Source: Arenicola marina (taxonomy: Eukaryota > Annelida > Polychaeta > Arenicolidae). From it: DNA of 64,000 nucleotides. A model generated the notes under the pieces. That model saw nothing but the letters and a program-made list of their open reading frames with translations. It was not told the DNA's origin and ran no database searches. The position numbers and the translations under genes are program-made. Positions 11,077 through 50,875 of the stretch are shown piece by piece; the first letter of the stretch is position 1; each line of letters starts with the position of its first letter. The stretch lies in assembly GCA_964019135.1 (NCBI GenBank), contig OZ025265.1, forward strand, positions 3,409,318 to 3,473,317, written 5' to 3'.

Positions 11077-13277
11077 TTTGCGCCGACGTAATTTAGGTAG
11101 GGGTAGAGGGGCTTTAAGAACCCATTAAATACCCCCTGTGCTGAGAGAGACATGGCCAGTCCAGCCAGATGTGACGCTGTGTAGGGGTGCAACAGGACCG
11201 GAGCGAGGGGGGGGGGGCGGGTAGGTAGGGACGGGTCTGGGGGATTGTCTCACGCCCGTGATACAAGTGGTAACTACATGAACACTATTGTCATAACACT
11301 ATGAACTAACTACATGCCAAATTGTCACAGTTTTCCACCCACCCGGATTTAACACGATTGGCCTGCATAATTGATCCGATTTGTCTTACAGATCCAGCAA
11401 CCAGGGTGTGTTTTGTCCTTACAGCTGGCGCCCTCCGTGACTCGCGTGTCCGTGGGTATGAGACCCCCGGCGTGACTCCTAGCTGTGGGCCCTCTATTAT
11501 CGCTCTCCCGCCGACATGGTCGCCCTTTGCGCGCGACACGCCCTAGGAGCACCCCCGGGGGGTTAAATGGTAAAGGTGTGGTGGTTGGGGTGATGGTAGG
11601 CGGGAGTAGGGTATGGGGATAGGGGTATGGGTGGCGGGGAGAATTGTGTTGGTGGAGATGGTGGTTGTGGTAGGAGTGATGGTGGTGGTGGTTGCGGGGA
11701 GAACGTAGGGTATAGGGATGGATAGGGGTTGCGATGTGGGGACGGGCAAAGGCAAGTGCCATAGAGAGGAGGTTGCACAGGAGGCGGACAGTGGCGTGCT
11801 ATAACGATTAAGTGTTGTCTCCGGCCAATTATTATATTGGAGCTTGTATAGCCAGAACCCGTATATAACGGGGTCATCCATCTCCATCATAATGTAGCTA
11901 CGACATCCATATTGCCTGTCCTTTCAACGGGGGCATAAATTATGAATCAGACTCGCGATAGAGCACCCCCCACCCCCCTCCCCCTTTCACCTTCCCGCCC
12001 TATCGCTGAGACGTTCCTGTATGAAGGTCAAGGCTCCGCCAAGGTATGTCCGCCGACTCCCTTCCCCATGTCCGCATTTTAGACAAACCATCTTAAGCGT
12101 CCACACCCCGTTCACCATTCCATCATGGCCAAACGTTGCTAAACTGCCGAATGAGCGAATATATGACACATATAAAATGTCCTGATCTTCGGTGGAGGAA
12201 AAACAATACGCACACATCATGCCAGAGAGGCAGCCACATTGATATGTCGGGGTAAAGGACACAGAATGACAAAAAGGGATGGTGACACAGAATTATACAT
12301 TGCACACCAGGCTCTGCTACCCCCACAATGGCTGAGACATATTACGCTCGCCATCGACCGCCGACACGGCTAAGTGTCGTGGCCAACATCTGCGATGGAA
12401 TCCGTGACGTGGGCGGAGCCTCCTGGCATGGTCGTTACGTTACCGAGGCGATGACGCACGGACCACGTGATGACGTCCACAGCTAGAACAGACACACCCA
12501 TGGCCTCCTGCTGTTGCCAATAATCGAATCGGCCGCCGACACAGGTTCCGTGTACGGCAGGTCATATATATGGCTGTAGGCGAGACAACTACACAGCGAG
12601 TCTCAGCAGCCAGCGGTAAGTTGTTCATCTCCATGGTTAGCGGCACCTGATTCCACTGTACTGGTTGTGGTCAGTCTTGGTGGGCGTCATCATCTCCATA
12701 TGCCCTCCCACCTCCACACCCCTCCCCCCTCCGCCCTTTACCCTCCACAGCCCTTCCCCCTCCACCTTATACATCTCTCCCCCTACCCCATCCGCAGCCC
12801 TCCCCCCTCCCCCCTCCATCCACCACACCCCACTAACCTTCACCCGCCACACCCCTCCCCCCTCCACCTCCACAAACTTTCATCCTCCCGCCTCCAGTCC
12901 CAGCTCTCCTTTTGAAATCCTCCTCCCGTTCTTTGTCCAAGACCTTCTGATACCGATATTCGGCTTTTTTTTTATTTCTTTTTGATTTGCTTTTCCAGAA
13001 GATACATCACAATAAGATCTCAGTTTCATGGAATGTTTAACACACAATACGTACATTATATAATCAATTGCTTGACTCTAGATGACTCTCGGGGTTTCCA
13101 TTTTCCGCCTACTTTTGCTTTTAATCTTGGCGATACATGTTTTTCAAGTTCGTATGTGAATTTAATACAGCCCCAGAGAAAGTTGGCACGGTAGCGCGAT
13201 ATTTACATTGGTATATATGTCTTTTAACAATTATTATTATATGATTGACCAGAACAGAAGCAGCTATGCTTTTCCCA
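11077..13277. other. Non-coding with GT-rich and CT-rich low-complexity tracts
   Basis: It contains a G10 run near 11208, a GGT/GT-rich stretch at about 11570-11720 and a CCT/CCA-rich stretch at about 12705-12900. Between them is unique DNA with no recognisable gene. A GGTAAGT string near 12615 could be a splice donor, but no exon can be argued for. Confidence 0.5.
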
Positions 13278-16200
13278 CTCCGTCCAGTGACGTTACCATT
13301 ACCATCCCGTCGAGTGACATTAACATTACCTCCCCGTCCAGTGACATCACCATTACCACCCCATCCAGTGACATCACCATTACCACCCCGTCCAGTGACA
13401 TCACCATTACCACCCCGCCCAGTGACATCACCATCACCACCCCATCCAGTGACATCACCATTACCGCCCCATCCAGTGACATCACCATTACCACCCCGTC
13501 CAGTGACATCACCATTACCACCCCGTCCAGTGACATCACCATCACCACCCCGTCCAGTGACATCACCATTACCACCCCATCCAGTGACATCACCATTACC
13601 ACCCCATCCAGTGACATCACCATTACCACCCCGTCCAGTGATATCACCATTACCTCCCCATCCAGTGACATCACCATTACCGCCCCATCCAGTGACATCA
13701 CCATTACCACCCCATCCAGTGACATCACCATTACCACCCCGTCCAGTGACATCACCATTACTACCCCTCCTAGTGATATCACCATTACCACCCCATCCAG
13801 TAACATCACCATTACCACCCCGTCCAGTGATATCACCATTACCTCCCCATCCAGTGACATCACCATTACCGCCCCATCCAGTGACATCACCATTACCACC
13901 CCACCCAGTGACATCACCATTACCACCCCGTCCAGTGACATCACCATTACCACCCCATCCAGTGACATCACCATTACCACCCTATCCAGTGACATCACCA
14001 TTACCACCCCATTCAGTGACATCACCATTACCACCCCATCCAGTGACATCACCATAACCACCCCATCCAGTGACATCACCATTACCACCCCATCCAGTGA
14101 CATCACCATTACCACCCCGCCCAGTGACGTCACCATTACCACCCCATCCAGTGACATCACCATTACCACCCCGTCCAGTGACATCACCATTACCACCCCG
14201 TCCAGTGACATCACCATTACCACCCCATCCAGTGACATCACCATTACCACCCCGCCCAGTGACATCACCATTACCACTCCGTCCAGTGACATCACCATTA
14301 CCACCCCATCCAGTGACATCACCATTACCACCCCAGCCAGTGACATCACCATTACCACCCCGTCCAGTGACATCACCATCACCGCCCCATCCAGTGACAT
14401 CACCATTACCACGGCATCCAGTGACATCACCATTACCACCCCGCCCAGTGACATCACCATTACCACCCCGCCCAGTGACATCACCATTACCACCCCATCC
14501 AGTGACATCACCATTACCACCCCATCCAGTGACATCACCATTACCGCCCCATCCAGTGACATCACCATCACCACCCCATCCAGTGACATCACCATTACCA
14601 TCCCGCCCAGTGACATCACCATTACCACCCCGTCCAGTGACATCACCATTACCACCCCATCCAGTGACATCACCATCACCACCCCAGCCAGTGACATCAC
14701 CATTACCACCCCATCCAGTGACATCACCATTACCTCCCCATCCAGTGACATCACCATCACCACCCCATCCAGTGACATCACCATTACCACCCCATCCAGT
14801 GACATCACCATTACCACCCCGCCCAGTGACATCACCATTACCACCCCGTCCAGTGACATCACCATTACCACCCCGTCCAGCGACATCACCATTACCACCC
14901 CATCCAGTGACATCACCATCACCACCCCGTCCAGTGACGTCACCATTACCGCCCCATCCAGTGACATCACCATCACCACCCCATCCAGTGACATCACCAT
15001 TACCACCCCGCCCAGTGACATCACCATTACCACCCCATCCAGTGACATCACCATTACCACCCCATCCAGTGACATCACCATCACCACCCCAGCCAGTGAC
15101 ATCACCATTACCACCCCATCCAGTGACATCACCATTACCTCCCCATCCAGTGACATCACTATCACCACCCCATCCAGTGACATCACCATTACCACCTCAT
15201 CCAGTGACATCACCATTACCACCCCGCCCAGTGACATCACCATTACCACCCCGCCCAGTGACATCACCATGACCACCCCGTCCAGTGACATCACCATTAC
15301 CACCCCGTCCAGTGACATCACCATTACCACCCCGCCCAGTGACATCACCATTACCACCCCATCCAGTGACATCACCATCACCACCCCATCCAGTGACATC
15401 ACCAGCATCACCCCGTCCAGTGACGTCACCATTACCAAACGCCCAGTGACATCACCATTACCACCCCATCCAGTGACATCACCATTACCACCCCGTCCAG
15501 TGACATCACCATTACCACCCCGCCCAGTGACATCACCATTACCACCCCATCCAGTGACATCACCATCACCACCCCATCCAGTGACATCACCATCACCACC
15601 CCGTCCAGTGACATCACCATTACCACCCCAGCCAGTGACATCACCATTACCACCTCATCCAGTGACATCACCATTACCGCCCCGCCCAGTGACATCACCA
15701 TTACCACCCCATCCAGTGACATCACCATTACCACCCCATCCAGTGACATCACCATTACCTCCCCAACCAATGACATCACCATTACCACCCCATCCAGTGA
15801 CATCACCATTACCACCCCATCCAGTGACATCACCATTACCACCCCGCCCAGTGACGTCACCATTACCACCCCATCCAGTGACATCACCATTACCACCTCG
15901 TCCATTGACATCACCATTACCACCCCGCCCAGTGACATCACCATTACCACCCCGCCCAGTGACATCACCATCACCACCTCGTCAAGTGACATCACCACCA
16001 CCCCAGCCAGTGACATCACCATTACCGCCTCATCCAGTGACATCACCATTACCGCCCCATCCAGTGACATCACCATTACCTCCCCATCCAGTGACATCAC
16101 CATGACCACCCCATCCAGTGACATCACCATTACCACCCCATCCAGTGACATCACCATTACCGCCCCATCCAGTGACATCACCATTACCACCCCGTCCAGT

Positions 16201-19200
16201 GACATCACCATTACCACCCCGTCCAGGGACATCACCATTACCACCCCGTCCAGTGACATCACCATTACCACCCCATCCAGTGACATCACCATTACCGCCC
16301 CGCCCAGTGACGTCACCATTACCACCCCGCCCAGTGGCATCACCATTACAACCCCATCCAGTGACATCACCATTACCTCCCCGTCCAGTGACATCACCAT
16401 TACCACCCCGTCCAGTGACATCACCATTACCACCCCGCCCAGTGACGTCACCATTACCACCCCGCCCAGTGACGTCAACATTACCACCCCGTCCAGTGAC
16501 ATCACCATTACACCCCGTCCAGTGACATCACCATTACCACCCCGCCCAGTGACATTACCATTACCACCCCGCCCAGTGACATCACCATTACCACCCCATC
16601 CAGTGACATCACCATTACCACCCCATCCAGTGACATCACCATCACCGCCCCATCCAGTGACATCACCATTACCACCCCGCCCAGTGACATCACCATTACC
16701 ACCCCAGCCAGTGACATCACCATTACCGCCCCGTCCAGTGACATCACCATTACCGCCCCCTCCAGGGACATCACCATTACCACCCCGTCCAGTGACATCA
16801 CCATTACCACACCATCCAGTGACATCACCATGACCACCCCATCCAGTGACATCACCATTACCACCCCGTCCAGTGACATCACCATTACCACCCCATCCAG
16901 TGACATCACCATTACCACCCCATCCCGTGACATCACCATCACCACCCCATCCAGTGACATCACCATTACCACCCCATCCAGTGACATCACCATTACCTCC
17001 CCATCCAGTGACATCACCATTACCACCCCGTCCAGTGACATCACCATCACCACCCCATCCAGTGACATCACCATTATCACCCCATCCAGTGACATCACCA
17101 TTACCACCCCGTCCAGTGACATCACCATTACCACCCCAGCCAGTGACATCACCATTACCACCCCATCCAGTGACATCACCATTACCACCTCGTCCAGTGA
17201 CATTACCATTACCACCCCATCCAGTGACATCACCATTACCGCCCCGTCCAGTGACATCACCATTACCACCCCATCCAGTGACATCACCATCACCACCCCA
17301 TCCAGTGACATCACCATTACCACCCCATCCAGTGACATCACCATTACCACCCCGTCCAGTGACATCACCATTACCACCCCATCCAGTGACATCACCATTA
17401 CCACCCCGCCCAGTGACATCACCATTACCACTCCGTCCAGTGACATCACCATCACCGCCCCAACCAGTGACATCACCATTACCACCCCATCCAGTGACGT
17501 CCCCATTACCACCCCGCCCAGTGACATCACCATTACCACCCCGTCCAGTGACGTCCCCATTACCACCCCATCCAGTGACATCACCATTACCACCCCGTCC
17601 AGTGACATCACCATTACCACCCCATCCAGTGACATCACCACTACCACCCCGCCCAGTGACATCACCATTACCACCCCGTCCAGTGACATCACCATTACCA
17701 CCCCGCCCAGTGACATTACCATCACCTCCCCATCCAGTGACATCACCATTACCGCCCCATCCAGTGACATCACCATTACCGCCGTATCCAGTGACATCAC
17801 CATTACCGCCCCAGCCAGTGACATCACCATTACCACCCCATCCAGTGACATCACCATTACCTCCCCATCCAGTGACATCACTATCACCACCCCATCCAGT
17901 GACATCACCATTACCACCCCATCCAGTGACATCACCATTACCACCCCGCCCAGTGACATCACCATTACCACCCCGCCCAGTGACATCACCATGACCACCC
18001 CGTCCAGTGACATCCCCATTACCACCCCGTCCAGTGACATCACCATTACCACCCCGCCCAGTGACATCACCATTACCACCCCATCCAGTGACATCACCAT
18101 CACCACCCCATCCAGTGACATCACCAGCATCACCCCGTCCAGTGACGTCACCATTACCAAACGCCCAGTGACATCACCATTACCACCCCATCCAGTGACA
18201 TCACCATTACCACCCCGTCCAGTGACATCACCATTACCACCCCGCCCAGTGACATCACCATTACCACCCCATCCAGTGACATCACCATCACCACCCCATC
18301 CAGTGACATCACCATCACCACCCCGTCCAGTGACATCACCATTACCACCCCAGCCAGTGACATCACCATTACCACCTCATCCAGTGACATCACCATTACC
18401 GCCCCGCCCAGTGACATCACCATTACCACCCCATCCAGTGACATCACCATTACCACCCCATCCAGTGACATCACCATTACCTCCCCAACCAATGACATCA
18501 CCATTACCACCCCATCCAGTGACATCACCATTACCACCCCATCCAGTGACATCACCATTACCACCCCGCCCAGTGACGTCACCATTACCACCCCATCCAG
18601 TGACATCACCATTACCACCTCGTCCATTGACATCACCATTACCACCCCGCCCAGTGACATCACCATTACCACCCCGCCCAGTGACATCACCATCACCACC
18701 TCGTCAAGTGACATCACCACCACCCCAGCCAGTGACATCACCATTACCGCCTCATCCAGTGACATCACCATTACCGCCCCATCCAGTGACATCACCATTA
18801 TCTCCCCATCCAGTGACATCGCCATGACCACCCCATCCAGTGACATCACCATTACCACCCCATCCAGTGACATCACCATTACCGCCCCATCCAGTGACAT
18901 CACCATTACCACCCCGTCCAGTGACATCACCATTACCACCCCGTCCAGGGACATCACCATTACCACCCCGTCCAGTGACATCACCATTACCACCCCATCC
19001 AGTGACATCACCATTACCGCCCCGCCCAGTGACGTCACCATTACCACCCCGCCCAGTGGCATCACCATTACAACCCCATCCAGTGACATCACCATTACCT
19101 CCCCGTCCAGTGACATCACCATTACCACCCCGTCCAGTGACATCACCATTACCACCCCGCCCAGTGACGTCACCATTACCACCCCGCCCAGTGACGTCAA

Positions 19201-22200
19201 CATTACCACCCCGTCCAGTGACATCACCATTACACCCCGTCCAGTGACATCACCATTACCACCCCGCCCAGTGACATTACCATTACCACCCCGCCCAGTG
19301 ACATCACCATTACCACCCCATCCAGTGACATCACCATTACCACCCCATCCAGTGACATCACCATCACCGCCCCATCCAGTGACATCACCATTACCACCCC
19401 GCCCAGTGACATCACCATTACCACCCCAGCCAGTGACATCACCATTACCGCCCCGTCCAGTGACATCACCATTACCGCCCCCTCCAGGGACATCACCATT
19501 ACCACCCCGTCCAGTGACATCACCATTACCACACCATCCAGTGACATCACCATGACCACCCCATCCAGTGACATCACCATTACCACCCCGTCCAGTGACA
19601 TCACCATTACCACCCCATCCAGTGACATCACCATTACCACCCCATCCAGTGACATCACCATTACCTCCCCATCCAGTGACATCACCATTACCAGCCCGTC
19701 CAGTGACATCACCATTACCACCCCATCCAGTGACATCACCATTACCACCCCATCCAGTGACATCACCATTACCACCCCATTCAGTGACATCACCATTATC
19801 ACCCCATCCAGTGACATCACCATTACCACCCCGTCCAGTGACATCACCATTACCACCCCAGCCAGTGACATCAGCATTACCACCCCATCCAGTGACATCA
19901 CCATTACCACCTCGTCCAGTGACATTACCATTACCACCCCATCCAGTGACATCACCATTACCGCCCCGTCCAGTGACATCACCATTACCACCCCATCCAG
20001 TGACATCACCATCACCACCCCATCCAGTGACATCACCATTACCACCCCATCCAGTGACATCACCATTACCACCCCGTCCAGTGACATCACCATTACCGCC
20101 CCGTCCAGTGACATCACCATTACCGCCCCCTCCAGGGACATCACCATTACCACCCCGTCCAGTGACATCACCATTACCACACCATCCAGTGACATCACCA
20201 TGACCACCCCATCCAGTGACATCACCATTACCACCCCGTCCAGTGACATCACCATTACCACCCCATCCAGTGACATCACCATTACCACCCCATCCAGTGA
20301 CATCACCATTACCTCCCCATCCAGTGACATCACCATTACCAGCCCGTCCAGTGACATCACCATTACCACCCCATCCAGTGACATCACCATTACCACCCCA
20401 TCCAGTGACATCACCATTACCACCCCATTCAGTGACATCACCATTATCACCCCATCCAGTGACATCACCATTACCACCCCGTCCAGTGACATCACCATTA
20501 CCACCCCAGCCAGTGACATCACCATTACCACCCCATCCAGTGACATCACCATTACCACCTCGTCCAGTGACATTACCATTACCACCCCATCCAGTGACAT
20601 CACCATTACCGCCCCGTCCAGTGACATCACCATTACCACCCCATCCAGTGACATCACCATCACCACCCCATCCAGTGACATCACCATTACCACCCCATCC
20701 AGTGACATCACCATTACCACCCCGTCCAGTGACATCACCATTACCACCCCATCCAGTGACATCACCATTACCACCCCGCCCAGTGACATCACCATTACCA
20801 CTCCGTCCAGTGACATCACCATCACCGCCCCAACCAGTGACATCACCATTACCACCCCATCCAGTGACGTCCCCATTACCACCCCGCCCAGTGACATCAC
20901 CATTACCACCCCGTCCAGTGACGTCCCCATTACCACCCCATCCAGTGACATCACCATTACCACCCCGTCCAGTGACATCACCATTACCACCCCATCCAGT
21001 GACATCACCACTACCACCCCGCCCAGTGACATCACCATTACCACCCCGTCCAGTGACATCACCATTACCACCCCGCCCAGTGACATCACCATTACCACCC
21101 CATCCAGTGACATCACCATTACCACCCCATCCAGTGACATCACCATTACCACCCCATTCAGTGACATCACCATTATCACCCCATCCAGTGACATCACCAT
21201 TACCACCCCGTCCAGTGACATCACCATTACCACCCCAGCCAGTGACATCACCATTACCACCCCATCCAGTGACATCACCATTACCACCTCGTCCAGTGAC
21301 ATTACCATTACCACCCCATCCAGTGACATCACCATTACCGCCCCGTCCAGTGACATCACCATTACCACCCCATCCAGTGACATCACCATCACCACCCCAT
21401 CCAGTGACATCACCATTACCACCCCATCCAGTGACATCACCATTACCACCCCGTCCAGTGACATCACCATTACCACCCCATCCAGTGACATCACCATTAC
21501 CACCCCGCCCAGTGACATCACCATTACCACTCCGTCCAGTGACATCACCATCACCGCCCCAACCAGTGACATCACCATTACCACCCCATCCAGTGACGTC
21601 CCCATTACCACCCCGCCCAGTGACATCACCATTACCACCCCGTCCAGTGACGTCCCCATTACCACCCCATCCAGTGACATCACCATTACCACCCCGTCCA
21701 GTGACATCACCATTACCACCCCATCCAGTGACATCACCACTACCACCCCGCCCAGTGACATCACCATTACCACCCCGTCCAGTGACATCACCATTACCAC
21801 CCCGCCCAGTGACATTACCATCACCTCCCCATCCAGTGACATCACCATTACCGCCCCATCCAGTGACATCTCCATTACCGCCGTATCCAGTGACATCACC
21901 ATTACCGCCCCATCCAGTGACATCACCATTACCTCCCCATCCAGTGACATCACCATGACCACCCCATCCAGTGACATCACCATTACCACCCCATCCAGTG
22001 ACATCACCATTACCACCCCATCCAGTGACATCACCATGACCACCCCATTCAGTGACATCACCATTACCGCCCTATCCAGTGACATCACCATTACCACCCC
22101 ATCCAGTGACATCACCATTACCACCCCGTCCAGTGACATCACCATCACCACCCCATCCAGTGACATCACCATTACCACCCCGTCCAGTGACATCACCATT

Positions 22201-23225
22201 ACCAACCCAGCCAGTGACATCACCATTACCGCCCCGCCCAGTGACATCACCATTACCACCCCATCCAGTGACATCACCATTACCACCCCATCCAGTGACA
22301 TCACCATTACCTCCCCAACCAGTGACATCACAGTTACCACCCCATCCAGTGACATCACCATTACCACCGCATCCAGTGACATCACCATTACCACCCCGCC
22401 CAGTGACGTCACCGTTACCACCCCATCCAGTGACATCACCATGACCACCCCATCCAGTAACATCACCATTACCTCCCCATCCAGTGACATCACCATTACC
22501 GCCCCATCCAGTGACATTACCATCACCACCTCGTCCAGTGACATCACCATTACCGCCCCATCCAGTGACATCACCATTACCACCCCATCCAGTGACATCA
22601 CCATTACCACCCCATCCAGTGACATCACCATTACCACCCCGCCCAGTGACATCACCATTACCGCCCCATCCAGTGACATTACCATCACCACCTCGTCCAG
22701 TGACATCACCATTACCGCCCCATCCAGTGACATCACCATTACCACCCCATCCAGTGACATCACCATTACCACCCCATCCAGTGACATCACCATTACCACC
22801 CCGCCCAGTGACATCACCATTACCACCCCATCTAGTGACATCACCATTACCACCCCATCCAGTGACATCACCATTACCGCCCCATCCAGTGACATCACCA
22901 TTACCTCCCCAGCCAGTGACATCACCATTACCACCCCAGCCAGTGACATCACCATTACCACCCCGCCCAGTGACATCACCATTACCGCCCCATCCAGTGA
23001 CATCACCATTACCACCCCATCCAGTGACATCACCATTACCGCCCCATCCAGTGACATCACCATTACCACCCCAGCCAGTGACATCACCATTACCACCCCA
23101 GCCAGTGACATCACCATTACCACCCCGCCCAGTGACATCACCATTACCGCCCCATCCAGTGACATCACCATGACCACCTCATCCAGTGACATCACCATGA
23201 CGACCCCATCCAGTGACATCACCAT
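13278..23225. repeat. Giant 27-bp minisatellite, about 368 copies
   Basis: Units contain CCAGTGACATCACCATTACC plus an ACCCC(A/G)TCC-type variable part. The consensus unit has about 12 C and only 2 G, so the plus strand is strongly C-rich for 10 kb. As 27 is a multiple of three and the unit lacks stops in several frames, frames of hundreds of codons exist on both strands ((TPSSDITIT)n and (PVTSPLPPH)n on plus, (MSLDGVVMV)n on minus). They switch frame at a few irregular units (near 15440, 15995, 16511, 18160, 18720, 19233). Some units carry TGACGTCA in place of TGACATCA. Confidence 0.99.
15092..20200. repeat. 2,722-bp higher-order duplication inside the 27-bp array
   Basis: Rare variants recur at a fixed offset of 2,722 bp. 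The ACCAAACGCCCAG irregularity is near 15436 and 18158, the TCGTCAAGTGACATCACC irregularity near 15980 and 18702, the TTACACCCCGTCC join near 16508 and 19230, and ATTATCACC at 17073 and 19795. The first copy begins near 15092 and the second near 17814. ATTATCACC recurs again at 20443 and 21172 (648 and 729 bp on, 24 and 27 units), so smaller blocks were duplicated later. Confidence 0.9.
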
Positions 23226-24082
23226 CACATCTTTGCGCCCTTTCCCGGTCCGCTCCGCCTTGTCGATGCGAGACGGAAGACGCCTGGAACATAAACCCTA
23301 GACTATGCTGCCATAAACATTTGCCTCGTCTTTCACTAAATCTGGGTTGCAGCAACAGCTGGAACAACAGCAATGGGAGCCTGAATGCCCCCCCCCCCCA
23401 CCCCCCCGCCACGCCCCCCCCCCCCCCCCATGGCTCCCTCCATCATAACACACTGCAGCCACAGCGGTAGGCGAGCAGTGACCTTTCCGACCACGTGACC
23501 CCCCAGACGGCTTCATAACTCGACATCCTGCGCCCATTAATTTCCGGACGCTCCGACGGGTCACGTGATCTGTTTCTTTTATACGGTTGTCCTGGCTTAC
23601 TTGACTTGAGGTAGGGTTGAATGAAATAATGGTATCCGGCATTATCTTTGCTTCCAGCCCCGCCCCCCCCACTCCCCTACCCACCCCCTTGATCCTCACA
23701 GTGACTCCCATGGGCATTCCCAGACCTAATGACACGACTTACCCAGGTCCAGGGGAGCCTCGCCATCGGTTCCTCCCGTTAGTCTTCCAGTATATCAAAA
23801 CGGAAACACGAACGCAAAAATAATGAACCATGAGAGTCTTGTTTCTCTCACTTTGAACAAGTCATGTATGTTTCTCTCAATATTCTCTAAAGGTTATTTC
23901 AAGGATTCATATGAAGCAATGCGCCTGACATGTGTACATCTGGCTTTCTGTGTGCAATATGGTTTCTTTTTCAAAGTCTTACATGCGAATTGAGTTTGTC
24001 CAGTAGGTCTGAACCCCGAGCCCGCCTTGGAGAAGGTCATTATGGATGGCAGATTTTTCTTCAACTTTAGGTGTAGAAGACC
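23226..24082. other. Unique spacer with C-runs, no gene recognised
   Basis: It holds two C-rich homopolymer clusters near 23388-23430 and 23660. Frames crossing it are extensions of repeat or homopolymer reading and show no domain. Confidence 0.5.
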
Positions 24083-24122
24083 TCTGACATTTTTTTTTTA
24101 TTATTTTTTTTTTTATAAGGAT

Positions 24123-24165: not shown

Positions 24166-24550
24166 TTAAAACATGATCGTGCTTATAAAACGAAGAATAC
24201 TTCCAACATCGGTCCAATTTAACAAAATATACACATTTGCTTTTGTCATTAATTCACGCTTGAGAAATGCCTTTGACTTAGTACTCTCTCGGCTAGCACC
24301 GTCTTTAATGTGGAGAAGCCAGCCTTTGTATAAAAGAAATGATAGCACCGATATTACAAAGTTGATCGATTTATTCTGAACGCCGAGAATAATTTCCTTT
24401 AAACTAATTTTAACGCTCAGCAGCTCTGATGTCAGTTTCCAAATTTCTTTCGAGAAATAACAATCATGTAACAAATGCATAGTATTTTCTGGGAGTCCAC
24501 ATCGGTCACGCAAGTCAGATTAAATTTTTCCCCATTTCACAAGGTTTCTT
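24166..24550 (-). pseudogene. LINE ORF2 C-terminal zinc-finger region
   Basis: After the RT frame stops at 24569, KWGKI, a TAA, and SDLRDRCGLPENTMHLLHDC continue the protein in another frame to a TAG/TAA near 24166. The CG..E..MHLLHDC pattern matches the end-of-ORF2 zinc finger of L1-like elements. The position where a first Cys is normally found reads Arg (CGT), one base from TGT. Hence at least one frameshift, one stop and one lost zinc ligand. Confidence 0.75.
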
Positions 24551-24568: not shown

Positions 24569-26179
24569 TTAATTACTTAAGTTAAAGGCAGCTATTTTTC
24601 TGTCTGGAATATCCTTAATTTTCCTCTTATATTCATCAGCAAAATTAATATCGAGGCGGTTGAAAAGATTTGATAATTTTACTTCTGTGTTCGGTACTTC
24701 ACTTTTCTTCGCAATAAATATTTCATAATATGCGCGAGTCGAGAGGTCGGCGATCGGGGCGGCTAGCGGGGCAGTTGCATATGGACATGAGGCGTATGAC
24801 ATCTCCGAGTTTATGACGTCTTTATATGGTTTAAGAGCCTGCCGTAGAAGAGATATCTCAGCAAAAATATTCCTCTTGTCTTTCACTCTTTCGTGTATTG
24901 AGAGCTCACATAGTTTCCCCATTGAGAAATCCAAATCTCTTATACGTATGATCCCTACTTCTATGAAGGACTTGAAAAGCAGGCAACAGTTTTTCCCGCA
25001 TATTTTCTTGTACGAAATAAAATAATTTCCCCAGAGAATTTCGTCACGCAGGTTTTCAAATACAATAGGTCGCGTTTCTTCTTTGCTTTGGCTATAGAAT
25101 TTGCATACTTCTTGGTAGAATTTAGGCAGAAGTTTAATTTGTGGTAGGTTTTGCTTGTTGATATTTTTAAATTTCAGAAAAATGAAGTCGTCTCCAAGAC
25201 TATTTAAGTGCGATCGGGCTAGAACGTTCCAATTTTCGTAAACGTTGACGATCCTTTTAACCCATGATGCTTTTATGGTTTGAAAGTGGGAAATTATGTC
25301 AATCATTGCTATGCCGCCTTGTTGTATTTTACGTATTAATTGCTTTTGTTTCAGTCTATCGCTTTTTCCCCAAATGAAATTATATAGGATTTTGTCGATC
25401 TGCGAGATCGTTTGGTCGTTTGGTATAGCTGTATGTGTCGCTACGAATGTTACTTTAGGAACAAGAAGTGTTTTGATAATGGTTACCTTTCCAAATATGG
25501 TATGTTCTCGAGTTCGCCAGTTTTCAATCTCATCTTTTATTTGTTTTATCTTTTTTTCCCAGTTTAGTTCATTGCATTTGGCTAGATTTTGTCCAATGTA
25601 TATTCCAAGGTATCTTATGGGAGTGCTTACAACTTTTATATCATTAATAGTAATATTTTTGTGCTTGTCTTTGCCTAAGTACATTCCAATTGTTTTGCTT
25701 TTGTTTAACAGAGGTCCAGCCCCATTTGAGAAAGCATCGATTTCTTCGAATACAAATTTTATTTGATCTGCATCTTGCAGTAGCAGTGTGCCATCGTCGG
25801 CATATTGAGACAGTTTCACTGTTTTTTCTTTACCATGTTGTTTAATGCGGTAGCCTTTTATTTTTTCATTGCTTTTTATTTCAATAGATAAGATTTCGAC
25901 TACGATGATAAAAAGTAGAGCTGAGAGGGGGCATCCTTGTTTGACACCTCGGTTTACTTGAAAGCTTTCTGACATAAGCCCATTATTTTTTACGTACAGA
26001 TAAGAATTGTTGTATAAAGTCTGAACCCATTTAATGAATTCATTTCCAAAATTGAACTTTTTGAGTACTTTTTCTATAAACAGCCACTCTACCGAATCGA
26101 AAGCTTTCTCAAAATCGAGAAATAATAGCAGACCTTTTTTGTCTTTTGTGTCTTGATGCTGGCTTGATTTCAGCCTTGC
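24569..26179 (-). pseudogene. LINE ORF2 reverse transcriptase, palm and thumb regions
   Basis: The open frame of 536 codons begins after a TAA at 26182-26180. Motif A is FLDFEKAFDSVEW (about 26087-26125), motif B is NRGVKQGCPLSALLF, and the catalytic motif C is QYADDG with YADD at 25793-25804. These are followed by PIRYLGIYIG and the L1-type thumb sequence PNDQTISQIDKILYNFIWG and GGIAMIDI. The fingers (motifs 0-2) are missing, which fits the deletion that also removed the endonuclease end. The palm itself is intact over about 470 residues, so the damage is recent relative to the element's age. Confidence 0.93.
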
Positions 26180-26954
26180 TTACATTGACATTTACTGAGC
26201 GGGAAGCTAATACATAGTCAATACGTGACATCGTTCCATTTATCGACGGTTGTACATATGTGAATTTTTGGTCATTGGGATGCATACATCGCCAAACATC
26301 TTTTAAGTCTAATGCAGATTTAAATTTAGAAAATTGGGAAGAACTTTGGTCGAGATTACCTGATGTCCTATCAATACTGTTGTCGACCGTGTTCAGGTCT
26401 GCTCCTATGATTAGATTATCTAGATTACAAGCATGGCGCTTAATCCAGATCGATAGTTTCTTAAGGAATATCGCTCTACCTTTATCAGGGGCATAAGCTA
26501 CAACCAAGGTATATAGATGGTTTTCATGTTTAATGTTTAACAGGAGCTTTCTCCCTTCATTGCTTCTGTGACACGACTTAATTTTTGGCTTATATTTGTT
26601 ATGGAACAGAATGGACACAGCTCTACTATGACTTGAGTCGCTCACACAGTGCAAAGCTTCTCCGTCCCAGTCGGCGTTAAATTTCTCAGTTATGTCATCA
26701 GTAATAAAAGTTTCCTGAAGGAAAGAGATATGGGCGTTTTGGTCCTTTAGAAACTGTAGTACTGCAGATCTATTTATCGGGTTTCGAAGTCACCTGCAGT
26801 TTAAAGAAACTACCGTTAATTTATCAGATTTGCTCATTGTATTATCGCACAACTGTTTGGTCTTAAATACATTGTCCCTTTGTAGCAAGGAGCTGTTGAT
26901 ATTTATAGCCACGCGGTCTTGAGATACTGTGCTTGCAACTTTCAGCTCTGACAT
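26109..26954 (-). pseudogene. LINE ORF2 start and apurinic-type endonuclease domain, with internal stop
   Basis: The frame starts at ATG 26954 (MSELKVASTVSQDR), passes LTVVSLNCR, hits TGA at 26792-26790 and continues as LRNPINRS. In active L1-type endonucleases this position is normally Gly (LN..GLRN), so GGA to TGA is the likely change. Downstream come HISFLQET, SHSRAVSILFHN, VVAYAPDKGRA, LIIGADLNTVDN and SRIDYVLAS, the expected order of endonuclease motifs with the catalytic Glu and Asp-Asn. The final SDH motif is absent because an internal deletion joins this frame to the RT near 26160-26180. Confidence 0.88.
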
Positions 26955-27169: not shown

Positions 27170-27406
27170 TTAGCCATAGTCTTTCTCTTGTGGCTCTTCA
27201 TCTGTTCGGCCTTGCTTGGCTGCTCTGGATGGAGAATTATCAGATAGTTTCCTTTTGCTGGAGACGGACCTCTGACGGCTAAGCTCTCGCCGAAGATAGC
27301 CGGTGATCGCAGTTTGAGATGTATCAGCATTGCTGATTGTTGGTGTTGACGCAGAGCGCTCTACGTTGATGTTGTTAGCTCTTCGAGCAGCGGTGAACTC
27401 TCGATG
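27170..27406 (-). pseudogene. Basic C-terminal tail of LINE ORF1, out of frame with the body
   Basis: After the A8 homopolymer another frame reads KHREFTAARRANNINVE and continues for about 78 codons to TAA at 27170-27172. It has normal protein composition, a basic serine-rich stretch (SRQRSVSSKRKLSDNSPSR) and an acidic end. Removing one A from the run would connect it to the repeat region, so it is most likely the true ORF1 end. A -1 slip would not reach this frame. At 27293-27316 it encodes QTAITGYL, close to a PCNA-interacting (PIP) motif but with Leu in the last aromatic position. Confidence 0.7.
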
Positions 27407-30122
27407 TTTTTTTTCTGCCACGCCTTTGGGTCTCTGGGTCGACCACGTCGGCGTCGGAGGGTTTCTCACCCGATGGCGCGGAGTCGGCCACCGCGGCGTG
27501 GGAGGGTTTCTCACCCGATGGCGCGGAGTCGGCCACCTCGGCGTGGGAGGGTTTCTCACCCGATGGCGCGGAGTCAGCCGCTGCGGTGTGGGGGGGTTTC
27601 TCACCCGATGGCGTGGAGTCGGCCACCGCGGCGTGGGAGGGTCTCTCACCCGATGGCGCGGAGTCGGCCACCGCGGTGTGGGAGGGTTTCTCACCCGGTG
27701 GCGCGGAGTCGGCCACCGCGGCGTGGGAGGGTTTCTCACCCGATGGCGCGGAGTCAGCCGCTGCGTTGTGGGGGTGTTTCTCACCCGATAGCGCGGAGTC
27801 GGCCACCGCGGCGTGGGAGGGTTTCTCACCCGATGGCGCGGAGTCGGCCACCGCGGCGTGGGAGGGTTTCTCACCCGATGGCGCGGAGTCGGCCACCGCG
27901 GCGTGGGAGGGTTGCTCACCCGATGGCGCGGAGTCGGCCACCGCGGCGTCGGAGGGTTTCTCACCCGATGGCGCGGAGTCGGCCACCGCGGCGTGGGAGG
28001 GTTTCTCACCCGATGGGGCGGAGTCGGCCACCGCGGCGTGGGAGGGTTTCTCACCCGATGGCGTGGAGTCGGCCACCGCGGCGTGGGAGGGTTTCTCACC
28101 CGATGGCGCGGAGTCGGCCACCTCGGCGTGGGAGGGTTTCTCACCCGATGGCGCGGAGTCAGCCGCTGCGGTGTGGGGGGGTTTCTCACCCGATGGCGTG
28201 GAGTCGGCCACCGCGGCGCGGGAGGGTCTCTCACCCGATGGCGCGGAGTCGGCCACCGCGGCGTGGGAGGGTTTCTCACCCGATGGCGCGGAGTCAGCCG
28301 CTGCGTTGTGGGGGTGTTTCTCACCCGATGGCGCGGAGTCGGCCACCGCGGCGTGGGAGGGTTTCTCACCCGATGGCGCGGAGTCGGCCACCGCGGCGTG
28401 GGAGGGTTTCTCACCCGATGGTGCGGAGTCAGCCACCTCGGCGTGGGAGGGTTTCTCACCCGATGGCGCGGAGTCAGCCACCGCGGCGTGGGAGGGTTTC
28501 TCACCGGATGGCGCGGAGTCGGCCACCGCGGCGTGGGAGGGTTTCTCACCCGATGGCGCGGAGTCAGCCGCTGCGGTGTGGGGGGGTTTCTCACCCGATG
28601 GCGCGGAGTCGGCCACCGCGGCGTGGGAGGGTTTCTCACCGGATGGCGCGGAGTCGGCCACCGCGGCGTGGGAGGGTTTCTCACCGGATGGCGCGGAGTC
28701 GGCCACCGCGGCGTGGGAGGGTTTCTCACCCGATGGCGCGGAGTCAGCCGCTGCGGTGTGGGGGGGTTTCTCACCCGATGGCGCGGAGTCGGCCACCGCG
28801 GCGTGGGAGGGTTTCTCACCGGATGGCGCGGAGTCGGCCACCGCGGCGTGGGAGGGTTTCTCACCGGATGGCGCGGAGTCGGCCACCGCGGCGTGGGAGG
28901 GTTTCTCACCCGATGGCGCGGAGTCAGCCGCTGCGGTGTGGGGGGGTTTCTCACCCGATGGCGCGGAGTCGGCCACCGCGGCGTGGGAGGGTTTCTCACC
29001 CGATGGCGCGGAGTCGGCCACCTCGGCGTGGGAGGGTTTCTCACCCGATGGCGCGGAGTCGGCCACCGCGGCGTGGGAGGGTTTCTCACCCGATGGCGCG
29101 GAGTCGGCCACCTCGGCGTGGGAGGGTTTCTCACCCGATGGTGCGGAGTCAGCCGCCGCGGTGTGGGGGGGTTTCTCACCCGATGGCGCGGAGTCGGCCA
29201 CCGCGGCGTGGGAGGGTTTCTCACCCGATGGTGCGGAGTCAGCCGCTGCGGTGTGGGGGGGTTTCTCCCCCGATGGCGCGGAGTCGGCCATCGCGATGTG
29301 GATAGGCTCCTTGTCGTGTGACGTGACTTCATTTAGTTCTTTTCTAACTTCCATCATTATTTTTCCGAGTAAGTTCATTCCCGGCCAAAATTCGCTTTTT
29401 GTGATGGCTGTGTGGTCTGCCCTGAGTCCACTTCCCCACACTCGATCGGTTGTTGCTTCTGCGATCTGGGTCTTGCAATCCAGGATCGCGCGACGGAAGT
29501 GTTCATTCTGCTTTGCTTTGGTGCGTGTTAGATTTCTCATGACATCTTCTCTTTTGTCATCCCATGATTCTACTAGTTCTTTTGGTAGGTCTCTGCTGCA
29601 TTTTTTGGCATCCCCAGCGTGGCATGCTGCTTTTATGCTCTCTGCCAGTTCTGCTTTTTCAAGATCTGTTGCACGTTTCCATTGGTAGGCGTGTTCTACG
29701 CTCTTAAAACGTTCTCCAAACACATGGATATCGGTGTTGTGGAAGTTTGACAATATCATATTGTGACCTTTAAAAACAGTCACATCATCATCCTTGTTCA
29801 GGGCCGGGCAATCTTTGTCACCAGCTTTGTGTCCATTTTTATCACACGCCTTGCATGGGATAGAGAATTGTCCTTGGTGGTAGGCTTTACATCTCATTCC
29901 CACCACACGTATCTGGCGTGGCACCAGAGGGTCGATGGGGGCCTCGGCGTAGCAATACCGATCTCCATTCTTATAGTCGGTGAGTTTGCCATCGGGATTT
30001 CGGGCTTTGGCATACATGATTGGTGAAGTCAGCTTTACGCCTTTCACTCTGACATTATGGACCCCCCCCCCCCCTTCCCCGTTTACCCCCTCTTTCGGAG
30101 TCGTAAGTGTTTCGGAGGCCAC
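27375..30122 (-). CDS. LINE ORF1: zinc knuckle + NADAR domain + 41x 15-residue repeat
   Basis: The frame of 915 residues starts at ATG 30122. Residues 20-89 resemble the gag-like region preceding the knuckle in L1/Tx1 ORF1 proteins. C90-x2-C93-x4-H98-x6-C105 is a zinc-knuckle variant with a long last spacing. Residues about 117-265 match the NADAR (YbiA-like) family: MILSNF, FKSVEHAYQ (139-147), VWGSGL (228-233) and GMNLLGKIMMEVRKEL. NADAR enzymes act on N-glycosidic bonds of nucleotide-ribose compounds, and some remove ADP-ribose from guanine in DNA. Residues 274-888 are 41 copies of SHAAVADSAPSGEKP-type units. A G13 run at codons 17-21 and an A8 run (27407-27414) are error- or slip-prone; after the A8 the frame leaves the natural tail and stops at 27375. 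It presumably binds element RNA in the RNP, and the catalytic role is inferred. Confidence 0.85.
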   Translation of the reverse strand: MASETLTTPKEGVNGEGGGGVHNVRVKGVKLTSPIMYAKARNPDGKLTDYKNGDRYCYAEAPIDPLVPRQIRVVGMRCKAYHQGQFSIPCKACDKNGHKAGDKDCPALNKDDDVTVFKGHNMILSNFHNTDIHVFGERFKSVEHAYQWKRATDLEKAELAESIKAACHAGDAKKCSRDLPKELVESWDDKREDVMRNLTRTKAKQNEHFRRAILDCKTQIAEATTDRVWGSGLRADHTAITKSEFWPGMNLLGKIMMEVRKELNEVTSHDKEPIHIAMADSAPSGEKPPHTAAADSAPSGEKPSHAAVADSAPSGEKPPHTAAADSAPSGEKPSHAEVADSAPSGEKPSHAAVADSAPSGEKPSHAEVADSAPSGEKPSHAAVADSAPSGEKPPHTAAADSAPSGEKPSHAAVADSAPSGEKPSHAAVADSAPSGEKPSHAAVADSAPSGEKPPHTAAADSAPSGEKPSHAAVADSAPSGEKPSHAAVADSAPSGEKPSHAAVADSAPSGEKPPHTAAADSAPSGEKPSHAAVADSAPSGEKPSHAAVADSAPSGEKPSHAEVADSAPSGEKPSHAAVADSAPSGEKPSHAAVADSAPSGEKHPHNAAADSAPSGEKPSHAAVADSAPSGERPSRAAVADSTPSGEKPPHTAAADSAPSGEKPSHAEVADSAPSGEKPSHAAVADSTPSGEKPSHAAVADSAPSGEKPSHAAVADSAPSGEKPSDAAVADSAPSGEQPSHAAVADSAPSGEKPSHAAVADSAPSGEKPSHAAVADSALSGEKHPHNAAADSAPSGEKPSHAAVADSAPPGEKPSHTAVADSAPSGERPSHAAVADSTPSGEKPPHTAAADSAPSGEKPSHAEVADSAPSGEKPSHAAVADSAPSGEKPSDADVVDPETQRRGRKKTSRVHRCSKS
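27447..29291 (-). repeat. 45-bp coding minisatellite, 41 copies, inside LINE ORF1
   Basis: Every unit is 45 bp and stays in the ORF1 frame; I counted 41 units with no indel and no stop. Variation is mostly at residues 1-5 of the unit (SHAAV, SHAEV, PHTAA, PHNAA), while ADSAPSGEKP is nearly constant. Patterns such as PHT-SHA-SHA-SHA repeat every four units (180 bp), a sign of block duplication. The segment is predicted disordered and rich in Ala, Ser, Pro and charged residues. Confidence 0.97.
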
Positions 30123-34036: not shown

Positions 34037-37000
34037 CACTCGCCAGGGCCGGTATTCCCGCCTCGCCAGGGCCGGTATTCCCGTCTCGCCAGAGCCGGTA
34101 TTCCCGCCTCGCCAGAGCCGGTATTCCCGTCTCGCCAGGGCCGGTATTCCCATCTCGCCAGGGCCGGTATTCCCGTCTCGCCAGGCCGGTATTCCCGCCT
34201 CGCCAGGGCCGGTATTCCCATCTCGCCAGGGCCGGTATTCCCGTCTCGCCAGGGCCGGTATTTCCGTCTCGCCAGGGCCGGTATTCACATCTCGCCAGGG
34301 CCGGTATTCTCATCTCGCCAGGGCCGGAATTCCCGCCTCGCCAGGGCCGGTATTCCCATCTCGCCAAGGCCGGTATTCCTATCTCGCCAGGGCCGGTATT
34401 CCCGTCTCGCCAGAGCCGGTATTCGCGTCTAGCCAGGCCGGTATTCCCATCTCGCCAGGCCTGGTATTCCCGTCTCGCCAGGCCTGGTATTCCCGTCTCG
34501 CCAGGGCCGGTATTCCCATCTCGCCAGGCCGGTATTCCCGTCTCGCCAGAGCCGGTATTCGCGTCTAGCCAGGCCGGTATTCCCGTCTCACCAGGCCTGA
34601 TATTCCCGTCTCGCCAGGCCTGGTATTCCCGTCTCGCCAGGGCCGGTATTCCCATCTCGCCAGGCCGGTATTCCCGTCTCACCAGGCCTGGTATTCCCGT
34701 CTCGCCAGGCCTGGTATTCCCATCTCGCCAGGCCTGGTATTCCCGTCTCGCCAGGCCGGTATTCCCGTCTCGCCACGGCCGGTCTTTCCGTCTCGCCAGG
34801 CCTCGTATTTCCGTCTCGCCAGGCCTGGTATTCCCGTTTCGCCAGAGCCGGGTATTCCCGTCTCGCCAGGGCCGGTATTCCCATCTCCCCAGGGCCAGTA
34901 TTCCCATCTCGCCAGGGCCGGTATTTCCATCTTGCCAGGCCTGGTATTCCCGTCTCGCCAGACCTGGTATTCCCGTCTCACCAGGCCTGGTATTTCCGTC
35001 TCGCCAGGCCTGGTATCCCGTCTCGCCAGGCCGGTATTCCCGTCTCGCCAGGCCGGTATTCCCGTCTCGCCAGGCCTGGTATTCCCGCCTCGCCAGGGCC
35101 GGTATTCCCATCTCGCCAGGCCGGTATTCCCGCCTCGCCAGGGCCGGTATTCCCATCTCGCCAGGCCGGTATTCCCATCTCGCCAGGCCGGTATTCCCGC
35201 CTCGCCAGGCCGGTATTCCCATCTCGCCCGGCCGGTATTCCCATCTCGCCAGGGCCGGTATTCCCATCTCGCCAGGTCGGTATTCCCGCCTCGCCAGGGC
35301 CGGTATTCCCATCTCGCCAGGCCGGTATTCCCATCTCGCCAGGCCGGTATTCCCGCCTCGCCAGGCCGGTATTCCCATCTCGCCAGGCCGGTATTCCCGC
35401 CTCGCCAGGCCGGTATTCCCATCTCGCCAGGGCCGGTATTCCCATCTCGCCAGGGCCGGTATTCCCATCTCGCCAGGCCCGTATTCCCGTCTCGCCAGGC
35501 CTGGTATTCCCGCCTCGCCAGGCCTGGTATTCCCGCCTCGCCAGGGCCGGTATTCCCATCTCGCCAGGCCGGTATTCCCGCCTCGCCAGGCCGGTATTCC
35601 CGCCTCGCCAGGGCCGGTATTCCCATCTCGCCAGGCCGGTATTGCCGCCTCGCCAGGGCCGGTATTCCCGCCTCGCCAGGGCCGGTATTCCCGCCTCGCC
35701 AGGGCCGGTATTCCCATCTCGCCAGGGCCGGTATTCCCATCTCGCCAGGCCGGTATTCCCGCCTCGCCAGGGCGGTATTCCCGCCTCGCCAGGGCCGGTA
35801 TTCCCATCTCGCCAGGCTGGTATTCCCGCCTCGCCAGGCCTGGTATTCCCGCCTCGCCAGGGCCGGTATTCCCGCCTCGCCAGGGCCGGTATTCCCATCT
35901 CGCCAGGCCGGTATTCCCGCCTCGCCAGGGCGGTATTCCCGCCTCGCCAGGGCCGGTATTCCCATCTCGCCAGGCCGGTATTCCCGCCTCGCCAGGCCTG
36001 GTATTCCCGCCTCGCCAGGCCGGTATTCCCGCCTCGCCAGGGCCGGTATTCCCGCCTCGCCAGGGCCGGTATTCCCATCTCGCCAGGCCGGTATTCCCGC
36101 CTCGCCAGGCCGGTATTCCCGCCTCGCCAGGCCGGTATTCCCGCCTCGCCAGGGCCGGTATTCCCATCTCGCCAGGCCGGTATTCCCGCCTCGCCAGGGC
36201 CGGTATTCCCGCCTCGCCAGGGCCGGTATTCCCATCTCGCCAGGGCCGGTATTCCCATCTCGCCAGGCCGGTATTCCCGCCTCGCCAGGGCAGTATTCCC
36301 GCCTCGCCAGGGCCGGTATTCCCATCTCGCCAGGCCGGTATTCCCGCCTCGCCAGGCCTGGTATTCCCGCCTCGCCAGGCCGGTATTCCCGCCTCGCCAG
36401 GGCCGGTATTCCCGCCTCGCCAGGGCCGGTATTCCCATCTCGCCAGGCCGGTATTCCCGCCTCGCCAGGCCGGTATTCCCGCCTCGCCAGGCCGGTATTC
36501 CCATCTCGCCAGGCCGGTATTCCCATCTCGCCAGGCCTGGTATTCCCGCCTCGCCAGGCCGGTATTCCCGTCTCGCCAGGCCGGTATTCCCGCCTCGCCA
36601 GGCCGGTATTCCCGCCTCGCCAGGGCCGGTATTCCCATCTCGCCAGGCCGGTATTCCCGCCTCGTCAGGGCCGGTATTCCCGCCTCGCCAGGGCCGGTAT
36701 TCCCATCTCGCCAGGGCCGGTATTCCCGCCTCGTCAGGGCCGGTATTCCCGCCTCGCCAGGGCCGGTATTCCCATCTCGCCAGGCCGGTATTCCCGCCTC
36801 GCCAGGCCGGTATTCCCGCCTCGCCAGGGCCGGTATTCCCATCTCGCCAGGCCGGTATTCCCGCCTCGCCAGGGCCGGTATTCCCGCCTCGCCAGGGCCG
36901 GTATTCCCATCTCGCCAGGGCCGGTATTCCCATCTCGCCAGGCCGGTATTCCCGCCTCGCCAGGGCAGTATTCCCGCCTCGCCAGGGCCGGTATTCCCAT

Positions 37001-38270
37001 CTCGCCAGGCCGGTATTCCCGCCTCGCCAGGCCTGGTATTCCCGCCTCGCCAGGCCGGTATTCCCGCCTCGCCAGGGCCGGTATTCCCGCCTCGCCAGGG
37101 CCGGTATTCCCATCTCGCCAGGCCGGTATTCCCGCCTCGCCAGGCCGGTATTCCCGCCTCGCCAGGCCGGTATTCCCATCTCGCCAGGCCGGTATTCCCA
37201 TCTCGCCAGGCCTGGTATTCCCGCCTCGCCAGGCCGGTATTCCCGTCTCGCCAGGCCTGGTATTCCCGTCTCGCCAGGCCTGGTATTCCCGCCTCGCCAG
37301 GGCCGGTATTCCCATCTCGCCAGGCCTGGTATTCCGGCCTCGCCAGGCCGGTATTCCCATCTCGCCAGGGCCGGTATTCCCATCTCGCCAGGGCCGGTAT
37401 TCCCGCCTCGGCAGGGCCGGTATTCCCATCTCGCCAGGGCCGGTATTCCCATCTCGCCAGGCCGGTATTCCCGCCTCGCCAGGCCGGTATTCCCGCCTCG
37501 CCAGGCCGGTATTCCCATCTCGCCAGGCCGGTATTCCCATCTCGCCAGGGCCGGTATTCCCATCTCGCCAGGCCGGTATTCCCGCCTCGCCAGGGCCGGT
37601 ATTCCCATCTCGCCAGGCCGGAATTCCCATCTCGCCAGGGCCGGTATTCCCATCTCGCCAGGCCGGTATTCCCGCCTCGCCAGGGCCGGTATTCCCGACT
37701 CGCCAGGGCCGGTATTCCCGCCTCGCCAGGCCGGTATTCCCATCTCGCCAGGCCGGTATTCCCGCCTCGCCAGGGCCGGTATTTCCTTCTCGCCAGGGCC
37801 GGTATTCCCGCCTCGCCAGGCCGGTATTCCCACCTCGCCAGGGCCGGTATTCCCGCCTCGCCAGGGCCGGTATTCCCGCCTCGCCAGGGCTGGTATTCCC
37901 GCCTCGCCAGAGCCGGTATTCCCGCCTCGCCAGGGCCGGTATTCCCGCCTCGCCAGGCCGGTATTCCCATCTCGCCAGGCCTGGTATTCCCGCCTCGCCA
38001 GGGCCGGTATTCCCATCTCGCCAGGGCCGGTATTCCCGCCTCGCCAGGGCCGGTATTCCCGCCTCGCCAGGGCCGATATTCCCATCTCGCCAGGGCCGGT
38101 ATTCCCGCCTCGCCAGGGCCGGTATTCCCGCCTCGCCAGGGCCGGTATTCCCGCCTCGCCAGGGCCGATATTCCCATCTCGCCAGGGCCGGTATTCCCGC
38201 CTCGCCAGGGCCGGTATTCCCGCCTCGCCAGGCCTGGTATTCCCGCCTCGCCAGGGCCGGTATTTCCGTC
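34037..38270. repeat. 22/23-bp minisatellite, about 190 copies
   Basis: Units of form TCGCCAGG(G)CCGGTATTCCC followed by GCC, ATC or GTC alternate between 22 and 23 bp depending on GGCC or GGGCC. Variants with GGCCTGG or AGAGCCGG also occur. Since no frame on the minus strand has a stop, frames of up to 1,429 codons cross the whole array regardless of unit length. Blocks repeat as larger units (for example around the CAGTATTCCCG variant near 36294 and 36966, 672 bp apart). Confidence 0.98.
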
Positions 38271-38289
38271 TCGGTATTCTCGTGCCATG

Positions 38290-50744: not shown

Positions 50745-50875
50745 CCGGAAGTCAGTCCCGCCAGCAGTTTACTTGTACAAACAACAATGCGCACTTCCTT
50801 AACGTCGACTTTACCATGTAGGTTACGGTAACTGCCGTTGACCTCATCCCCAGCCACGTGTTTTCTGTCGTGCCT

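What the first reader, a model, noticed from the sequence alone, without database searches (positions are those of the whole stretch)
29320..30122. NADAR hydrolase domain inside a LINE ORF1
The ORF1 protein joins an RNA-binding type zinc knuckle to a NADAR domain with its family motifs (LSNF, SVEHAYQ, WG.GL, G.NLLGKIMMEVR) apparently intact. NADAR enzymes cleave N-glycosidic bonds, and some reverse guanine ADP-ribosylation. A retroelement that carries one could undo an ADP-ribose-based host block on its RNA or target DNA, or process NAD-related nucleotides in its RNP. Domain presence is seen; the counter-defence role is inference.
Basis: partly seen in the sequence, partly recalled or inferred. 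Interest (0 to 1): 0.8.

Follow-up and report, generated by a model that had tools for sequence, protein, structure and literature searches.

The report
NADAR enzyme domain in dead LINE
A broken copy of an animal jumping gene carries, in its RNA-packaging protein, a domain from an enzyme family that can strip ADP-ribose off DNA and RNA; relatives share it, one paper has noted the pairing in passing, and what the domain does for the element is untested.

Summary

The pairing is a family trait: 38 database relatives have the same knuckle and NADAR (3 are NADAR fragments without a Pfam call). One further relative shares the N-terminal domains, has two canonical knuckles and no NADAR, so NADAR is an add-on. 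LINE NADARs form one supported group. The window copy keeps 8 of 11 published ADP-ribose contacts; K50 is R. A derived branch, 16 of 35 complete domains, has lost two contacts (K50 to M, D130 mostly to S), yet stays conserved.

NADAR in Tx1 LINE ORF1s of oyster was already noted in passing (PMC12477816). Counter-defence is plausible but untested; hydrolysis of the known kind is unlikely to be needed throughout the family.

The parts
24082..24091 (.). target-site duplication, copy at the 3' end of the element
   Evidence: CTCTGACATT occurs only here and at 30047 in the 64 kb
24090..24114 (-). poly(A) tail; polyadenylation signal AATAAA just upstream at 24128-24123
   Evidence: sequence; the first two bases overlap the duplication
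24166..24519 (-). ORF2 C-terminal remnant with a Cys/His cluster like that of L1-type ORF2 ends, in another frame than the RT
   Evidence: no Pfam match; likeness judged by eye
24569..26179 (-). ORF2 reverse transcriptase remnant, N-terminal part missing
   Evidence: PF00078 E=2.7e-21 from profile position 60; closest PDB chains human L1 ORF2p, E=3e-34
26109..26789 (-). ORF2 APE-type endonuclease remnant; in-frame stop near its start
   Evidence: PF03372 E=4.2e-10; L1-type endonucleases, best E=4.2e-14; stop seen
27170..27437 (-). ORF1 C-terminal tail, in a different frame from the NADAR
   Evidence: KRKLSDNSP resembles the family consensus KRKxSxSP; judged by eye
27438..29295 (.). 45-bp minisatellite, about 41 copies, read in frame as 15-residue repeats after the NADAR
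   Evidence: the repeat peptide is in none of the 40 fetched database proteins
29325..29789 (-). NADAR domain
29808..29855 (-). CX2CX4HX6C zinc knuckle
29856..30044 (-). C-terminal part of the second RRM-like domain; all that is left of the ORF1 N-terminus
   Evidence: tblastn homology of relatives begins at 30044-30035; no further remnant upstream
30047..30056 (.). target-site duplication, copy at the truncated 5' end

Best explanation
The window holds a dead, 5'-truncated copy of an L1-superfamily, probably Tx1-like, LINE. In its family, ORF1p is an RNA-binding protein built as RRM-like, RRM-like, CCHC knuckle, NADAR, disordered tail. NADAR was added behind the first knuckle. Most likely working (inferred): ORF1p coats the element RNA, and in the branch to which the window belongs the tethered NADAR removes ADP-ribose from guanine bases of the RNA, the cDNA or the nicked target, protecting the template from a host or environmental ADP-ribosyltransferase. 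In a derived branch the same fold lost two contacts and probably serves as a binder or acts on something else. Shown: the anatomy, the family, the residue pattern. Inferred: RNA coating, hydrolysis, substrate, protection. Anatomy about 0.95; the figure below is for the mechanism.
Confidence: 0.38

Rival explanations
1. NADAR works as a non-catalytic ligand-binding or protein/RNA-docking module in ORF1p across the family; residual pocket residues serve binding or folding.
For: A whole branch lost K50 and D130 yet its NADAR columns are more conserved on average (0.67) than in the K/R branch (0.54), with E43, W89 and W133 positions at 100% of letters. NADAR stands where P0041 has its second knuckle, an RNA-binding element.
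Against: In the K/R branch (19 rows) E43 is kept in 18, D130 in 17, W133 in 18 and E125 as E in 14 or H in 4, the pattern of known hydrolases; H is the published phage-NADAR form (PMC11125620, passages).
Confidence: 0.33
2. NADAR is active on a small molecule or another N-glycosidic linkage (NAD-derived nucleotides, NAD-capped RNA ends, riboflavin-pathway intermediates) rather than on guanine-ADP-ribose.
For: YbiA-type NADARs are N-glycosidases on riboflavin intermediates (PMC9303266, passages); action on small ADP-ribose derivatives is proposed for phage NADARs (PMC9503650, passages); changed adenosine-side contacts in the window domain.
Against: Fusion to nucleic-acid-binding domains points to a nucleic-acid substrate; [quoted passage not shown]
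Confidence: 0.15
3. NADAR fell into this locus by chance: a host NADAR gene or pseudogene beside a LINE, not part of it.
For: The copy is rearranged and lies among minisatellites.
Against: 38 relatives carry the same knuckle-NADAR order; the target-site duplication brackets NADAR and ORF2 together; the printed oyster case.
Confidence: 0.03

Closest known systems
Tx1 LINEs of Crassostrea gigas with YbiA-family NADAR domains in ORF1 (Repbase families, reported in PMC12477816; passages seen)
   Same: NADAR in the ORF1 protein of an L1-superfamily LINE
Gypsy LTR elements of Ectocarpus with NADAR at the N-terminus of Pol (PMC12477816; passages seen)
   Same: a retroelement that took up a NADAR domain
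   Different: other element class and other protein; the paper suggests acquisition from bacteria by horizontal transfer
E. coli YbiA and Phytophthora nicotianae NADAR (2b3w, 8bau)
   Different: fused to RNA-binding domains; K50 is R; Y84 and D86 replaced
DarT1-associated NADAR antitoxins (8bat, E. coli C7)
   Different: YbiA-type glutamate in the last strand instead of aspartate; no partner transferase seen
NADAR domains in polyproteins of positive-strand RNA viruses of invertebrates (PMC9503650 passages; BFVD hits)
   Same: NADAR joined to an RNA-based replicator
   Different: different replicator and protein; the structural match is at 19-26% identity

Membership tests
NADAR superfamily (PF08719) | profile match above the curated cutoff | tested here: met
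   95.2 bits against 35.1, E=6.6e-27
NADAR superfamily (PF08719) | YbiA fold | tested here: met
NADAR superfamily, YbiA subfamily | glutamate in the last strand (E125) | tested here: met
   E222 in the window; E in 30 of 35 LINE domains, H in 4, A in 1
NADAR hydrolases shown to act on guanine-ADP-ribose | E43 and K50 (C7 E88, K95) | tested here: not met
   E43 kept as E143, K50 is R150 in the window; K95R of C7 kept in-vitro activity but not rescue. So membership of this functional group is not claimed.
NADAR hydrolases shown to act on guanine-ADP-ribose | hydrolysis of guanine-ADP-ribose | not testable with these tools
   needs an enzyme assay
L1-superfamily LINE | APE-type endonuclease and L1-like reverse transcriptase in ORF2 | tested here: met
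   best PDB hits are L1 endonucleases and L1 ORF2p (E=3e-34), R2 much weaker (E=5e-11)
L1-superfamily LINE | poly(A)-tailed insertion with target-site duplication | tested here: met
Tx1 clade | RT phylogeny with reference Tx1 elements | not testable with these tools
   no Repbase or Tx1 reference sequences at hand
RRM/CCHC-type LINE ORF1 | RRM domain(s) followed by CCHC knuckle(s) | tested here: inconclusive
   CCHC met in 39 of 39 rows but spacing is X6, not X4, at the last step; RRM-like folds matched only modestly

The most novel reading that the evidence does not exclude
A LINE lineage has carried an enzymatic eraser of guanine ADP-ribosylation inside its RNA-coating protein as counter-defence: it clears ADP-ribose that host transferases (for example N2-guanine-specific ones such as clam CARP-1) put on element RNA or on the DNA being primed, and one branch later turned the same domain into a non-hydrolytic sensor or docking module. 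This would be an ADP-ribose arms race at the level of a non-LTR retrotransposon.
Probability: 0.2. Interest if true: 0.85.

Novelty: new member of a known kind. Interest (0 to 1): 0.5.

Why it matters
If the domain is active, a retrotransposon carries in cis the only enzyme family so far found to reverse guanosine ADP-ribosylation on RNA (PMC11833690, passages). That would point to nucleic-acid ADP-ribosylation as a barrier to retrotransposons in invertebrates, where guanine-specific DNA ADP-ribosyltransferase activity is known from six edible clams (PMC11209040, passages) and the role of animal NADARs is unknown (PMC11125620, passages). The split into a contact-keeping and a contact-losing branch gives a built-in comparison for testing whether catalysis or binding is what the element needs.

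Tried and rejected
Rejected: that the ORF1 of this copy is intact, or that its start is at 30122. Homology begins at 30044, the duplication places the element's end at 30046, and a relaxed search upstream found no further remnant, only one gapped low-identity extension of the P0008 match. A first reading of MASETLTT as a decayed ORF1 start was dropped on that ground.

Rejected: E258 as the catalytic glutamate. I counted it first; the last-strand glutamate named in PMC11543638 is E222 here, recounted.

Controls against the reading: the first target-site control compared the wrong stretch at the 3' end (longest shared word 6) and its random pairs were inflated by tandem repeats (588 of 20,000 pairs shared 8 or more bases, 345 shared 10 or more). 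Repeated with the right stretch and annotated repeats left out: 10 shared bases, reached by 11 of 40,000 random draws.

Bias to note: the 80 viral loci were the best 80 of 119 found by peptide patterns that required E at position 143 and K, M or R at 150, so 78 of 78 E and K there are partly built in; 78 of 78 D at 226 are not. The tree used 39 of those 78 viral domains (every second one) and left out LINE fragments P0024, P0036, P0037, P0038 and NADAR-less P0041; quick method, no bootstrap; host animal NADARs other than the triple-NADAR protein P0040, and the Ectocarpus Gypsy NADARs, are absent. Residue counts use 39 rows with fragments; those use 35 rows.

No result: a search with the NADAR part alone scored 23 candidates, none at E 1e-12 or better. 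In the phage collection the ORF1 piece matched 441 records, all below 60% identity, none covering 80% of the query, as expected of distant NADARs. Rfam at gathering thresholds: no match in the window. ARAGORN's two tRNA-Leu calls lie inside the 45-bp minisatellite and are taken as artefacts. dN/dS was not computed. Which organism the window comes from was not established.

Literature: searches; in the listings seen (20 of 104, 15 of 15, 15 of 33, 2 of 2, 12 of 16) only PMC12477816 links NADAR with a LINE. Subscription journals and Repbase are not held.

Full report
What is there. On the minus strand, 29789-29325 encodes a NADAR domain: Pfam PF08719, E=6.6e-27, 95.2 bits against a cutoff of 35.1. 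A CX2CX4HX6C knuckle precedes it at 29855-29808. The reading frame runs on through a 45-bp minisatellite of about 41 copies (27438-29295), which being a multiple of three stays open. Downstream lie an APE-type endonuclease (26109-26789, PF03372) and a reverse transcriptase (24569-26179, PF00078). The RT matches human L1 ORF2p best (E=3e-34) and R2 proteins far less (E=5e-11); the endonuclease matches L1-type endonucleases.

The copy is a dead insertion. Relatives' homology begins at 30044-30035. CTCTGACATT occurs twice in the 64 kb, at 30047-30056 and 24082-24091, that is, at the 5' limit of homology and directly after a poly(A) tail (24114-24090) with AATAAA at 24128-24123. A 10-base match is reached by 11 of 40,000 random non-repeat draws; a first, mis-aimed control is told under Tried and rejected. 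So the element starts at 30046, and the first 26 residues of the reported ORF (30122-30047) are flanking DNA. No remnant of the missing N-terminus was found upstream. Further lesions: the likely C-terminal tail of ORF1 is in another frame after the minisatellite, an in-frame stop sits near the endonuclease start, and about 340-360 residues are missing between endonuclease and RT (the gap is estimated from positions in L1 ORF2p). The minisatellite peptide is in none of 40 fetched database proteins, so it looks private to this copy or its near kin.

The family. Two searches gave 40 proteins. 38 of them, with the window, share the knuckle (39 of 39) and a NADAR; 35 of the 38 carry a precomputed Pfam NADAR, the other three (P0024, P0036, P0037) are fragments. 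AlphaFold2 of P0002 (455 aa, pLDDT 84.4) shows two RRM-like domains, knuckle, NADAR and a disordered tail; Foldseek finds YbiA, 8bau and tandem-RRM proteins, the latter with low TM-scores. P0040 is a different, triple-NADAR protein. P0041 shares about 180 N-terminal residues with family members (best E=5e-29), has two canonical CCHC knuckles and no NADAR. In the alignment its first knuckle falls on the family's knuckle, so NADAR sits where P0041 has its second. NADAR is thus an added module; whether P0041 shows the state before the gain or after a loss is open.

Tree. With 35 complete LINE NADARs, 39 of 78 viral domains and P0040's three, the LINE domains form one group (SH-aLRT 98), with the P0040 domains and one viral domain as neighbours. 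One acquisition is the simplest reading, but host animal NADARs are hardly sampled.

Pocket. PMC11543638 section 12 names the contacts in the P. nicotianae NADAR-ADP-ribose structure. In the alignment (chain index minus 2 gives the paper's numbers; my reading, supported by the spacing) the window is identical at 8 of 11: E43, K75, R79, W89, R93, E125, D130, W133. K50 is R150; Y84 and D86 are E and V. In C7 NADAR the K-to-R mutant kept in-vitro hydrolysis but not rescue. Across 35 complete LINE domains: E43 position E in 34 (Q in P0005); K50 position K 13, R 4, M 15, V 1, I 1, gap 1; E125 position E 30, H 4, A 1; D130 position D 17, S 13, N 2, H 1, A 1, G 1; W133 position W 34, F 1. The M rows and P0039 (gap) form one branch of 16 (SH-aLRT 99), none with D at the D130 position. 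That branch is no relic: mean column majority is 0.67 there against 0.54 in the other 19. In 78 viral NADARs D is 78 of 78 at that position and K 78 of 78 at K50, the latter partly built in by the search pattern.

Constraint. Over 31 family proteins NADAR columns have mean majority 0.55, near the second RRM-like domain (0.58) and above the first (0.49) and the tail (0.36). That argues for selection on NADAR at protein level. dN/dS could not be computed.

How it may work. Established elsewhere: NADARs remove ADP-ribose from N2 of guanine in DNA (PMC11543638) and were the only hydrolase family found to do so on guanosine RNA (PMC11833690); clams show N2-guanine DNA ADP-ribosylation, purified as CARP-1 (PMC11209040); that NADARs erase such marks is an assumption by its authors (PMC11543638, figure 6 legend). 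[quoted passage not shown] Human L1 RNPs are restricted by ZAP/PARP13 (PMC4441479, abstract), though through its zinc fingers, so this is background only. From this I infer an ORF1p-tethered eraser in the K/R branch (0.38), with a binding-only module as a close rival (0.33).

Novelty. PMC12477816 (passages) states that ORF1 proteins of several Tx1 LINE families of Crassostrea gigas appear to contain YbiA-family NADAR domains, besides Ectocarpus Gypsy elements, and suggests a role in processing RNA intermediates. The searches listed no other paper linking NADAR with LINEs. New here, as far as those searches show: the P0041 comparison, the two-branch residue split, the fold match, and the anatomy of this copy. 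I file it as a new member of a known kind.

Noticed in passing
window 13275-23225: A 27-bp minisatellite of about 369 copies, nearly 10 kb, directly beyond the 3' side of the LINE; with 34039-38273 (23/45-bp units) and others, a large share of the window is tandem repeat.
   Followed up: no
window 29066-29252: Two ARAGORN tRNA-Leu calls fall inside the 45-bp minisatellite and are probably artefacts.
   Followed up: partly
window 50108-50818: An open frame over a 60-bp tandem repeat scores against Pfam THSD1_D2 (E=1.1e-7 for the whole, no single stretch significant); probably a repeat effect.
   Followed up: no
P0015, P0016, P0018, P0033 (relatives): Four LINE NADARs carry H at the E125 position, the residue published as typical of phage NADARs.
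   Followed up: partly
P0040 (relative): A 691-aa protein with three NADAR domains (Pfam E=5e-90) in which the E43-equivalent is A, A and R and the D130-equivalent is N, E and N in my alignment, so likely non-catalytic.
   Followed up: partly
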